DNA from: Gloeocapsa sp. DLM2.Bin57
Lineage (GTDB): Bacteria > Cyanobacteriota > Cyanobacteriia > Cyanobacteriales > Gloeocapsaceae
Reading direction: 5' to 3'
NCBI GenBank assembly: GCA_007693955.1
Contig: RECR01000125.1
Location: forward strand, 1 to 37,770
Length of the DNA stretch: 37,770 bases
Shown here: positions 31,417 through 34,007 of the stretch, in pieces
How the letters are laid out: every line of letters starts with the position of its first letter
Numbering within the stretch: the first letter of the stretch is position 1
Notes under the pieces: model-generated
What the model was told of the DNA's origin: nothing
The model's input: only the letters and a program-made list of their open reading frames with translations
The model's database searches: none
Program-made: the position numbers and the translations under genes

Positions 31417-32253
31417 ATGTTAGATATCTTATTAGAGCCTTTGCAATTAGGTTTTATGCAGCGATCGCTAATCGAAGCGGTAATCGTGGGGACTATTTGC
31501 GCCGTCGTCGGTAGCTATCTTATGGTACAAAGATTAGCACTCCTTGGGGACGCCATTAGTCACTCAGTTTTACCAGGATTAGCGATCGCCTTTTGGTTAG
31601 GAATTAATATCTTTTTCGGTGCTTTTGTAGCGGGAATTATCAGTACTATCTGTATTAACATCATTAGAAATCGTTCTCCGATTAAAGAAGATGCAGCGAT
31701 GGGTATTGTTTTTTCCGCTTTTTTTGCTTTAGGAATCACTTTGATTACCGTAATCCAAAAAGACAATAAAATTGACCTCAATCATTATCTTTTTGGCAAT
31801 ATTCTCGGGGTAACTTGGGGAGATATTCGCGATACAGCGATTATAGCAGTAATTATCTTATTAGTAGTAGTTGCTTTATATAAAGAACTATTATTCTATA
31901 CCTTTGACCAAATCGGTGCACAAGCTGTAGGTTTACCAGTAAAATTATTAGATATGAGTCTGATGATTTTGATTGCTCTAACCATCGTCGCTAGCTTAAA
32001 AACCGTAGGAGTAGTTCTAGTACTTTCTCTATTAATTACTCCTTCTGCTTGTGCTTATCTACTAGTTACTCGTCTCCACCAAGTCATGTTATTAGGGGTA
32101 GGAATAGGGATTTTTTCTAGCGTCTCAGGTATGTATCTGAGTTATTTTCAAAATATACCCTCAGGACCGGGGATTGTTTTAGTAGCATCGGGATTATTTA
32201 TACTCATCCTGCTGTTTAGTCCTCTACACGGATTGCTTACGTCCAAAAAATAG
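31417..32253 (+). CDS. ABC-3 family Zn/Mn transporter permease
   Basis: A 278-aa integral membrane permease of the ZnuB/MntB type, with about eight hydrophobic helices. The family-typical stretches are MVQRLALLGDAISHSVLPGL (36-55) and the later VGVVLVLSLLITPSACAYLL. It would import zinc or manganese together with an ATPase and a metal-binding lipoprotein, neither of which lies in this window. Metal specificity cannot be read from the permease. It is coupled to the UbiB-like gene. Its TAG stop codon is the first three bases of the 54-bp direct repeat that bounds the integrative element, so insertion next to it has left the reading frame exactly intact. Confidence 0.85.
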   Translation: MLDILLEPLQLGFMQRSLIEAVIVGTICAVVGSYLMVQRLALLGDAISHSVLPGLAIAFWLGINIFFGAFVAGIISTICINIIRNRSPIKEDAAMGIVFSAFFALGITLITVIQKDNKIDLNHYLFGNILGVTWGDIRDTAIIAVIILLVVVALYKELLFYTFDQIGAQAVGLPVKLLDMSLMILIALTIVASLKTVGVVLVLSLLITPSACAYLLVTRLHQVMLLGVGIGIFSSVSGMYLSYFQNIPSGPGIVLVASGLFILILLFSPLHGLLTSKK

Positions 32254-32304
32254 ATTAGAAGCGGGTAACGCGATTCGAACGCGCGACATCCACCTTGGCA
32301 AGGT
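32251..32304. repeat. Left direct repeat (att site, tRNA-Gly 3' fragment)
   Basis: 54 bp identical to 33927-33980. On the minus strand it carries the tRNA-Gly sequence from the anticodon stem to the 3' end plus 10 bp of flank. After the repeat, tRNA similarity stops abruptly (AAGCAG instead of GGCGCT), so this is a tRNA fragment, not a working gene. The repeat's inner edge contains ACCTTGG-CAAGGT-type symmetry (anticodon stem-loop, ACCTTG-C-CAAGGT on the minus strand), a typical crossover core for tyrosine recombinases. Confidence 0.88.
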
Positions 32305-32324
32305 AAGCAGCATAGCCTAAAACC

Positions 32325-32394
32325 CTATTACCTAATAGGAAACGGTTTACTATTACCTAGTAGAGAGTAGCTATCTTGGATCAATCTTGGATCA
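32325..32394. repeat. Left-end internal repeats (candidate recombinase arm sites)
   Basis: Two palindromic 14-mers, CTATTACCTAATAG (32325-32338) and CTATTACCTAGTAG (32350-32363), are spaced 25 bp apart. A perfect tandem duplication of ATCTTGGATCA follows (32373-32383, 32384-32394). Matching sets occur at the right end, with the 14-mer inverted. They lie upstream of the recombinase gene, so they could serve both as arm-type sites and as its operator. Confidence 0.7.
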
Positions 32395-32423
32395 CCTAAA
32401 ACGCTAAATAATAGGTGGTTCAT

Positions 32424-33614
32424 ATGCAGAGCATAGAAGTAATAAAACGTGTTGACAGAGTATCGATAGAACGTTGCCGTAATTCAATACGGATTCGATT
32501 TACCCTAGACAAAAAGTCTTATTCCCTAACTATAGGTAAAGACTCCAAAGAGACGGTTAAAAAAGCAGTAGCAGTCGCTAATCAAATCAATGCTGATATC
32601 CTATGGAATTGTTTTGATACAACCCTAGTCAAGTATGGTAAAGCACCTACTAAGATTAACAGCAATCTAATACAACTACCTAACGACAATGATACGGAAA
32701 TAACCATTAAAGAGATATGGGATACGTACTTAATGGTTCGAGGCAATAGCTTACCCAATAGCAGCAAGGGACATCACAAAGGCGTTGGTAAGTGGATTTC
32801 CTTAATACCAAGTCACCAATTGGGAGTGAGCCATGCACAGACTCAGATAGAAGTCTTAAAGCTTACCTACGGAAAGAATACAGTTAGTAGGCTATTCCGG
32901 TCGATAAACGCGGCTTGTAACCTAGCAGTCAAACTAAAACTACTTGATAGTAATCCCTATGCTGTATATCGAGATACTCTGGTAATCTCTACTCAAGGAG
33001 AAAGGAGTTGTAAACCTTTTGAGCCATATGAGATACCAATCATACTAAACGCGTTTAAAACCGATCGCTTTTGCAATCCCAATTCAGCATTCAAACATAG
33101 CTATTACTATCCGTTTGTTCTATGCCTAACCTTGACGGGTGCGAGGCCAGAAGACGTGATAGCTCTCACGATTGACGATATCATCTACGGCAAGAATCGT
33201 AAGGTTTTAAGGTTCAATAAAGCCTATACTCACGGAGAATTAAAAGGAACTAAAACCGAGACTATCAGAATGTTCCCAATTAACGAGCAACTTGAGCAAT
33301 GCTTAAAGATAGCACCAATTTACAACAACAAAGAACACAGTCTATTGTTCCCTAGCCAAAAAGGCAACTATCTAGACTTGCACAATTTCACGAATCGTTA
33401 TTTTACCCCAATTGTCAAAGAGTTAGTCAAGGTAGGGGAAATCGAAAACCAATTACCTACGTATCATTTAAGGCATACTTTCATTACTCAAATGATACGT
33501 AAAGGGATAGACATTGCTACAATAGGAAACTTAGTAGGGAACAGTGCTGAAACTATCCTTAGCAATTATTTGGGTACAGATAAAGGAGTAGAGCTACCAG
33601 ACATAGACGTCTAG
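32424..33614 (+). CDS. int: Tyrosine recombinase (integrase)
   Basis: A 396-aa phage-type integrase. The N-terminal half (about 1-190) is a DNA-binding/SAM-like region. The catalytic half has the box I Arg in LTGARPEDV, the hairpin Lys in ELKGTKTETIR, the HLRHTF motif (His and Arg II) and the nucleophile Tyr in LSNYLGTD. The usual GHS before the Tyr reads GNS, a tolerated His-to-Asn change in this superfamily. The ATG at 32424 is preferred (AGGTGG 5 nt upstream); a GTG three codons earlier is possible. It is followed by its own terminator. It should catalyse integration and excision at tRNA-Gly(GCC). Confidence 0.9.
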   Translation: MQSIEVIKRVDRVSIERCRNSIRIRFTLDKKSYSLTIGKDSKETVKKAVAVANQINADILWNCFDTTLVKYGKAPTKINSNLIQLPNDNDTEITIKEIWDTYLMVRGNSLPNSSKGHHKGVGKWISLIPSHQLGVSHAQTQIEVLKLTYGKNTVSRLFRSINAACNLAVKLKLLDSNPYAVYRDTLVISTQGERSCKPFEPYEIPIILNAFKTDRFCNPNSAFKHSYYYPFVLCLTLTGARPEDVIALTIDDIIYGKNRKVLRFNKAYTHGELKGTKTETIRMFPINEQLEQCLKIAPIYNNKEHSLLFPSQKGNYLDLHNFTNRYFTPIVKELVKVGEIENQLPTYHLRHTFITQMIRKGIDIATIGNLVGNSAETILSNYLGTDKGVELPDIDV

Positions 33615-33655
33615 GTAACTCTACATAATTGAACTTTAATGATATAAAACAATTT

Positions 33656-33682
33656 GGGATGTTAGCAGCATCCCTTTTTTTT
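33656..33682 (+). terminator. Intrinsic terminator of the integrase gene
   Basis: GGGATG / CATCCC stem (33656-33661 and 33669-33674) with a 7-nt loop, followed by eight T. It lies 41 bp after the integrase stop codon. Confidence 0.88.
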
Positions 33683-33751
33683 GGGCTTTTGTAATTCTTA
33701 GTTGGTTACTCTGTTTTTTTATCCTTACTTCATTCATAGCATAGATATCCC

Positions 33752-33859
33752 CTATTAGGTAATAGTATAAATAATAGTGATTGATTCTCTATTAGGTAAT
33801 AGGAAATACTAATCTATTATTTCTTCTATTTTAGCCTATATTGGATCATAATTGGATCA
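33752..33859. repeat. Right-end internal repeats (candidate recombinase arm sites)
   Basis: CTATTAGGTAATAG occurs at 33752-33765 and 33789-33802; it is the exact reverse complement of the left-end 14-mer at 32325. TTGGATCA occurs at 33841-33848 and 33852-33859, an 11-bp period equal to that of the left-end pair and in the same orientation. The rest of 33683-33926 is AT-rich with no gene. Confidence 0.7.
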
Positions 33860-33926
33860 GGTATCCTAGATTGAACCTAACAAGGATAACTAGCTAATCG
33901 CTGAAACGCGTACTAGGTATAGGGTT

Positions 33927-33980
33927 TAGATTAGAAGCGGGTAACGCGATTCGAACGCGCGACATCCACCTTGGCAAGGT
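33927..33980. repeat. Right direct repeat (att site within tRNA-Gly)
   Basis: Identical to 32251-32304 over 54 bp. It covers the 3' part of the intact tRNA-Gly gene, from the anticodon stem to 9-10 bp past its 3' end. Integration has rebuilt a full tRNA, as tRNA-targeting elements usually do. Confidence 0.88.
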
Positions 33981-34007
33981 GGCGCTCTACCACTGAGCTA
34001 TACCCGC
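33936..34007 (-). tRNA. tRNA-Gly(GCC)
   Basis: A complete 72-nt cloverleaf on the minus strand. It has a 7-bp acceptor (GCGGGTA / TACCCGC), a D arm (GCTC-AGTGGTA-GAGC), an anticodon stem CCACC / GGTGG with loop TTGCCAA (anticodon GCC), and a T arm GCGCG-TTCGAAT-CGCGT with one G-T pair. The discriminator is T and there is no encoded CCA. The 3' half from the anticodon stem is shared with the fragment at 32251-32304. Confidence 0.96.

What the first reader, a model, noticed from the sequence alone, without database searches (positions are those of the whole stretch)
32251..33980. One-gene, 1,676-bp integrative element in tRNA-Gly(GCC)
Identical 54-bp direct repeats, an intact tRNA on one side and a fragment on the other, and only a tyrosine recombinase with its own terminator between them. 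This is far smaller than usual genomic islands. It resembles the tRNA-targeting, integrase-based elements called tycheposons in marine picocyanobacteria, but without cargo. It could be an autonomous minimal element, a satellite, or a landing pad that can capture cargo. The perfect identity of the repeats suggests recent or still active integration.
Basis: partly seen in the sequence, partly recalled or inferred. Interest (0 to 1): 0.85.

Follow-up and report, generated by a model that had tools for sequence, protein, structure and literature searches.

The report
One-gene tRNA-targeting mini mobile element
A cyanobacterial chromosome carries a 1.7-kb mobile element in a glycine tRNA gene whose only gene is the enzyme that inserts it; it is most likely a stripped-down relative of 4-10 kb satellite-like elements, still with every DNA site the enzyme should need, and so small that at least one standard island survey would discard it.

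Summary
A perfect 54-bp direct repeat (32251-32304 / 33927-33980, 1,676 bp apart) flanks one tyrosine-recombinase gene with its own terminator, next to an intact tRNA-Gly(GCC). Beyond the finding, both ends carry a paired 11-bp-spaced direct repeat (TTGGATCA) and two near-palindromes, placed as arm-type sites of a lambda/Tn1549-like integrase, and the predicted protein has the matching N-terminal arm-binding-type fold. Among 147 related cyanobacterial integrase loci this 11-bp spacing is a hallmark. The window integrase sits in a clade whose other repeat-bounded members are about 5-10 kb elements in other tRNA genes, nearly all with a VapE, D5-like or other replicase; one genome has two in tandem. 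The window element has the same architecture without the cargo. Three less intact one-gene cases occur elsewhere in the tree. The same genome also holds integrase-less right ends at two other tRNAs. Same-genus genomes have the tRNA unoccupied and no fragment, but the flanks are rearranged, so the exact empty site was not seen. Best reading: a recently inserted, cargo-less derivative of a satellite-like tRNA element whose recombination module looks complete. Whether it moves alone is untested.

The parts
32251..32304 (.). distal attachment-site copy: 3' half of tRNA-Gly(GCC) plus 9 nt; starts at the TAG stop of the upstream ABC-3 permease gene
   Evidence: 54/54 identity to 33927-33980
32325..32338 (.). 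near-palindrome CTATTACCTAATAG (end repeat)
   Evidence: four places in the window, all in the element; 0 of 100 shuffles reach the count
32350..32363 (.). near-palindrome CTATTACCTAGTAG (end repeat)
32376..32394 (+). left arm-type pair TTGGATCA-NNN-TTGGATCA (11-bp spacing)
   Evidence: family-wide 11-bp spacing
32424..33614 (+). tyrosine recombinase (integrase), 396 aa; beta-beta-beta-alpha N-terminal domain, core-binding and catalytic domains; motif R241, K277, Y347xxR350, GNS, Y382
33656..33682 (+). terminator-like hairpin and T-run after int
33752..33765 (.). near-palindrome CTATTAGGTAATAG (inverted copy of the left-end repeats)
33789..33802 (.). near-palindrome CTATTAGGTAATAG
33841..33859 (+). 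right arm-type pair TTGGATCA-NNN-TTGGATCA (11-bp spacing)
33856..33927 (+). right-end block, also found without an integrase beside tRNA-Thr(CGT) (81% identity) and tRNA-Pro(CGG) (72%) in the same genome
33927..33980 (.). attachment-site copy that completes the intact tRNA gene
33936..34007 (-). intact tRNA-Gly(GCC), the target gene

Best explanation
It is a one-gene, tRNA-targeting integrative element that derives from a family of cyanobacterial satellite-like elements (integrase plus small genes plus a VapE/D5/DUF3987-type replicase, about 4-10 kb) by loss of the cargo between the integrase terminator and the right end. Inferred mechanism: as a circle it would carry attP (arm pair - tRNA 3' half - arm pair). 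The integrase would bind the 11-bp-spaced arm repeats with its N-terminal domain and the tRNA core with its core-binding and catalytic domains, and recombine at the anticodon-loop edge of tRNA-Gly(GCC). The element then supplies the 3' half that keeps the tRNA intact and leaves the old 3' half as the left fragment. Shown: repeats, tRNA, complete integrase reading frame, paired arm-type repeats at both ends, kinship with cargo elements of the same layout, absence from same-genus relatives. Inferred: that the arm repeats are bound by Int, that cargo was lost rather than never present, and that the module still recombines. It encodes no recognisable excisionase, replicase or transfer gene, so replication, transfer and perhaps excision would need help from the host or another element.
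For:: perfect DR with whole and half tRNA; arm pair at both ends with exact 11-bp spacing, as in 10/19 left and 13/19 right ends of DR-bounded elements and 72/81 tRNA-int intervals, versus about 1% of 1,714 control windows; predicted fold with a beta-beta-beta-alpha N-terminal domain; best PDB matches Tn1549 Int and lambda Int; relatives with the same layout (fragment, int, cargo, intact tRNA on the opposite strand), 4-9.3 kb, in Thr, Gly(GCC), Arg, Val, Phe and Ala tRNA genes; those scanned carry VapE, DUF3854, DUF5906/D5, DUF3987 or AAA_25 replicases. L200 uses the same tRNA-Gly(GCC) with nearly the same repeat edge; window int falls inside a 39-row clade (SH-aLRT 99) whose other DR-bounded members all have multi-gene interiors; integrase-less right-end pieces in the same genome show that related elements were here and decayed; lowest codon adaptation (0.554 vs 0.56-0.73 for 16 host genes).
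Against: No relative above about 40% identity was found, so cargo loss in this very lineage is inferred from the tree, not seen. The empty site with both present flanks was not found. No read-level or circle evidence. The int lies on a long branch (1.15), so its exact place in the clade is weak (SH-aLRT 94).
Confidence: 0.62

Rival explanations
1. A natural one-gene element: it moved into this site as integrase plus ends only, the tRNA-targeting counterpart of an insertion sequence, carried between cells by transformation, vesicles or generalised transduction.
For: Both ends and int look complete with nothing decayed in between; perfect DRs; three more DR-bounded int-only cases exist in relatives (L113 1,407 bp, L128 1,900 bp, L271 1,388 bp).
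Against: All other DR-bounded members of its own clade have multi-gene interiors. The other int-only cases are scattered in the tree, have imperfect repeats, and two lack right arms. No second copy in the genome.
Confidence: 0.2
2. An inert relic: a decayed integrative element that can no longer recombine.
For: The genome has integrase-less right ends of related elements at tRNA-Thr, tRNA-Pro and after znuC, so decay happens here; no excisionase, no replicase.
Against: Intact 396-codon frame with the family's conserved catalytic residues, perfect 54-bp repeats and complete arm pairs at both ends show no decay.
Confidence: 0.12
3. A landing pad or host-retained integrase that stays at the tRNA and captures cargo.
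For: In a related part of the tree single integrases next to tRNAs look vertically inherited and under purifying selection (dN/dS about 0.1), often with conserved upstream and variable downstream DNA; L128 and L147 share both flanks with no cargo.
Against: The window int is not in that part of the tree, lies on a long branch, is absent from both same-genus genomes and has host-atypical codon usage.
Confidence: 0.05
4. No mobile element: the tRNA fragment arose by segmental duplication or rearrangement next to an unrelated integrase.
For: The permease-tRNA-Gly adjacency is absent in G001 and G002, so the locus has been rearranged.
Against: Exact att edge at the anticodon region shared with L200 in another family; paired arm repeats at both ends at family-typical distances; neither same-genus genome has the fragment at the permease end or at the tRNA.
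Confidence: 0.01

Closest known systems
Cyanobacterial int plus VapE/D5/DUF3987 replicase elements in tRNA genes (seen here: L195, L200, L201, L202, L216, L210, L085, L081; I found no published name for this family)
   Same: integrase family, tRNA target, position and orientation of fragment and tRNA, 11-bp arm pairs; L200 uses the same tRNA-Gly(GCC)
   Different: they carry 3-8 kb of cargo with a replicase and small genes; the window has none
Tycheposons (Prochlorococcus and others; given as 4-200 kb cargo-carrying elements in PMC10872708)
   Same: tyrosine recombinase, tRNA border, cyanobacterial host
   Different: no cargo, below the stated size range, no sequence kinship with tycheposon recombinases tested
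PICMI and other small phage satellites (PMC10803314: int, alpA, primase core)
   Same: the cargo-bearing relatives have a similar minimal set (int, small gene, DUF3987/DUF5906-type replicase)
   Different: different host phylum and site; no AlpA found in the proteins scanned; the window element lacks the replicase
Islander-type tDNA islands (PMC4383910)
   Same: whole tRNA, displaced fragment, integrase between; anticodon-type site
   Different: at 1.68 kb it is below Islander's 2-kb length filter
Small cryptic integrated elements of Thaumarchaeota (smallest 2.6 kb, four genes; PMC6563490)
   Same: integrase-bearing element of very small size
   Different: those have at least three further genes; archaeal

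Membership tests
tRNA-targeted integrative element (tDNA island in the Islander sense) | intact tRNA gene plus displaced 3' fragment in the same orientation | tested here: met
tRNA-targeted integrative element (tDNA island in the Islander sense) | tyrosine integrase gene between the two | tested here: met
tRNA-targeted integrative element (tDNA island in the Islander sense) | size 2-200 kb (Islander filter, PMC4383910) | tested here: not met
   1,676 bp. This is a software threshold, not a biological criterion
tRNA-targeted integrative element (tDNA island in the Islander sense) | empty site in related genomes | tested here: inconclusive
   tRNA-Gly unoccupied in G001 and G002 and no fragment at the permease end, but the flanks are not adjacent there
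lambda-type (heterobivalent) integrase system | N-terminal arm-binding domain plus arm-type sites on both sides of the core | tested here: met
   predicted fold and sequence motifs only; binding not tested
cyanobacterial int plus replicase satellite-like family | integrase in the same clade | tested here: met
   SH-aLRT 94-99
cyanobacterial int plus replicase satellite-like family | replicase (VapE/D5/DUF3987) cargo | tested here: not met
   no other gene
tycheposon | cargo genes, 4-200 kb | tested here: not met
tycheposon | recombinase kin to the tycheposon recombinases | not tested
   the defining paper is not held
phage satellite (PICI/PICMI) | helper-phage induction and packaging | not testable with these tools
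   no packaging or replication gene in the window element

The most novel reading that the evidence does not exclude
One-gene, about 1.4-1.9 kb tRNA-targeting integrases form an IS-like class of autonomous elements in cyanobacteria (integrase, arm pairs and tRNA half only) that recurs and is missed by island finders with a 2-kb cut-off, with larger satellites arising from them by picking up replicases, or the reverse.
Probability: 0.2. Interest if true: 0.75.

Novelty: new variant of a known kind. Interest (0 to 1): 0.47.

Why it matters
It defines a candidate smallest self-contained tRNA recombination module (one protein, one tRNA half, a paired arm site at each end) in a phylum where such integrases are widespread, and gives a testable attP for cyanobacterial genetics. 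It shows that a published island survey with a 2-kb cut-off misses this size class, and it links an intact int-only element, its cargo-bearing relatives and integrase-less remnants.

Tried and rejected
Phage origin: only 25-29% identity to cyanophage integrases (Lsp-JY17, PaV-LD and others); viral contigs gave distant matches and no copy of the element's ends. Plasmids: at most 26% over most of the protein. Second copies in the genome: none. Defence cargo: none for the proteins scanned. RNA families other than tRNA: none. Distal att within 10 kb in the other tRNA-linked integrases: none beyond those listed. Element-driven rearrangement: the right-end pieces lie at places where synteny with G001 or G002 is broken, but synteny in the genus is poor overall, so not claimed. 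Literature search for integrase-only elements gave only cargo-carrying defence islands.

Full report
CHECK OF THE OBSERVATION. The 54-bp direct repeat is exact (32251-32304 and 33927-33980, spacing 1,676). The right copy completes an intact tRNA-Gly(GCC) at 33936-34007 on the minus strand. The left copy is the 3' half (45 nt) plus 9 nt past the tRNA end, and begins on the TAG stop codon of the ABC-3 family permease gene 31417-32253, which stays intact. Between them lies one gene, 32424-33614 (396 aa), Phage_integrase PF00589 E=4.8e-14; no other plausible ORF exists (the longest is 61 aa, antisense inside int). A terminator-like hairpin with 8 T follows at 33656. The contig is 37,770 bases of a 3.45-Mb, 138-contig genome, and int occurs once.

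WHAT ELSE IS IN THE ELEMENT. Each end holds a pair of direct repeats TTGGATCA-NNN-TTGGATCA (32376-32394; 33841-33859), the only such pairs in the window (expected 0.02), and two near-palindromes CTATTACC/GGTAATAG (32325, 32350; 33752, 33789; none of 100 shuffles reaches this count). The predicted fold of the integrase (mean pLDDT 80) starts with three strands and a helix, as expected of an arm-binding domain, followed by four core-binding helices and the catalytic domain; best PDB matches are Tn1549 Int and lambda Int. The conserved catalytic-motif residues (R241, K277, Y347xxR350, GNS, Y382) are those of the family (the family has Tyr where most have the His of HxxR).

RELATIVES. Searches of 391 genomes of the order and of GTDB contigs gave 147 distinct related loci. 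Ninety-six have a tRNA within 1 kb of the integrase. An exact 11-bp spacing of repeated 7-mers, with a different sequence in each element, lies in 72 of 81 intervals between tRNA and int, and in 10/19 left and 13/19 right ends of DR-bounded elements, against about 1% of 1,714 control windows. So the window's repeats are a family hallmark and very probably Int arm sites. DR-bounded relatives with the window's layout (fragment, int, cargo, tRNA on the opposite strand) measure 4,061-9,308 bp in Thr, Gly, Arg, Val, Phe and Ala tRNA genes. G159 has two 5.7-kb elements in tandem at tRNA-Val (L210), which points to mobility. L200 (G085) uses the same tRNA-Gly(GCC) with nearly the same repeat edge. 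Those scanned carry replicases: VapE (L195, L202, L216, L081), DUF5906/D5 (L200, L085), DUF3987 (L201), AAA_25 (L111, L223); L221 and L273 have no replicase recognised by eye. They resemble small satellites such as PICMI in gene content.

PLACE OF THE WINDOW ELEMENT. In a tree of 141 integrases the window protein joins a 39-row clade (SH-aLRT 99; nearest node 94) whose other DR-bounded members all have multi-gene interiors. The window branch is long and no relative above about 40% identity is known. The other one-gene, DR-bounded cases (L113 1,407 bp in tRNA-Met, L128 1,900 bp in tRNA-Arg, L271 1,388 bp in tRNA-Thr) lie elsewhere in the tree, have 2-5 mismatches in their repeats, and only L128 keeps arm pairs at both ends. 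One-gene forms have therefore arisen more than once, and the simplest account of the window is cargo loss from a satellite-like element with both ends and int spared. A natural one-gene element remains possible.

AGE AND ACTIVITY. The displaced tRNA fragment, free of selection as a tRNA, has 0 of 54 differences from the copy at the intact tRNA. Both same-genus genomes (G001, G002) have tRNA-Gly(GCC) next to ribH without the element, and the permease 3' end without a fragment. The stated refuting observation was therefore not seen; but the permease and the tRNA are not adjacent in those genomes, so a strict empty site is missing. Codon adaptation of int is lower than that of 16 host genes of the window (0.554 against 0.56-0.73). 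Activity itself was not tested.

TRACES OF OTHER ELEMENTS IN THE SAME GENOME. The 72 bp between right arms and att (33856-33927) recur beside tRNA-Thr(CGT) (C40, 81%) and tRNA-Pro(CGG) (C55, 72%), each with its own 11-bp-spaced arm-like repeats (TTGGCTCA; TGGTATCA) but no integrase; a further piece lies behind znuC on C123. None is in G001 or G002 apart from a 26-bp match in G002 at E=0.009. They look like solo ends left by related elements.

COMPARISON. It works like a tDNA island of the Islander type, but at 1,676 bp it is below Islander's 2-kb filter (PMC4383910). It is not a tycheposon by the published size and cargo description (4-200 kb with cargo; PMC10872708), and the tycheposon recombinases could not be compared. 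The smallest integrase element found in the papers read is 2.6 kb with four genes (PMC6563490). E. coli 'integrase-only' islands carry defence cargo (PMC10121019).

VERDICT. Real, recent, and unusually small: a new variant of a known kind. The recombination module looks complete; autonomy and activity are open and easy to test.

Noticed in passing
L274:3065-3165 (G000:C40), L275:3670-3770 (G000:C55), L285:3164-3221 (G000:C123): Integrase-less right ends of related elements beside tRNA-Thr(CGT) (at its 5' side), beside the 3' end of tRNA-Pro(CGG), and a piece behind znuC without a tRNA; all specific to this genome among the three of the genus apart from a 26-bp match in G002.
   Followed up: partly
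L128, L121, L147, L126/L139, L140/L142, L127/L131 (Nostocales and other filamentous cyanobacteria): Single integrases next to the same tRNA across genera, with arm repeats kept and dN/dS about 0.06-0.14; the upstream flank is often conserved and the downstream DNA variable, with no distal att within 10 kb. L128 and L147 share both flanks with no cargo. They may be retained landing sites or heads of large islands.
   Followed up: partly
L210 (G159:C21:1-13000): Two 5.7-kb int plus replicase elements in tandem at one tRNA-Val(GAC) with matching direct repeats.
   Followed up: no
L274:3419-3534 and about 35 other contig ends of G000: A 115-bp sequence at 90-100% identity sits at many contig ends, probably the end of a high-copy insertion sequence that breaks the assembly.
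   Followed up: no
window 32251-32253: The element's repeat begins on the stop codon of the ABC-3 permease gene, so insertion preserved both the permease and the tRNA by only a few bases.
   Followed up: yes
L081, L085, L201, L216, L223: A conserved small protein of about 90-100 aa (LKPFKSKWxNT..KxIRIPxxLxxxILAYAxxLD) recurs in the cargo elements without a Pfam match (three members scanned: L081, L085, L216); candidate regulator or excisionase, absent from the window element.
   Followed up: no
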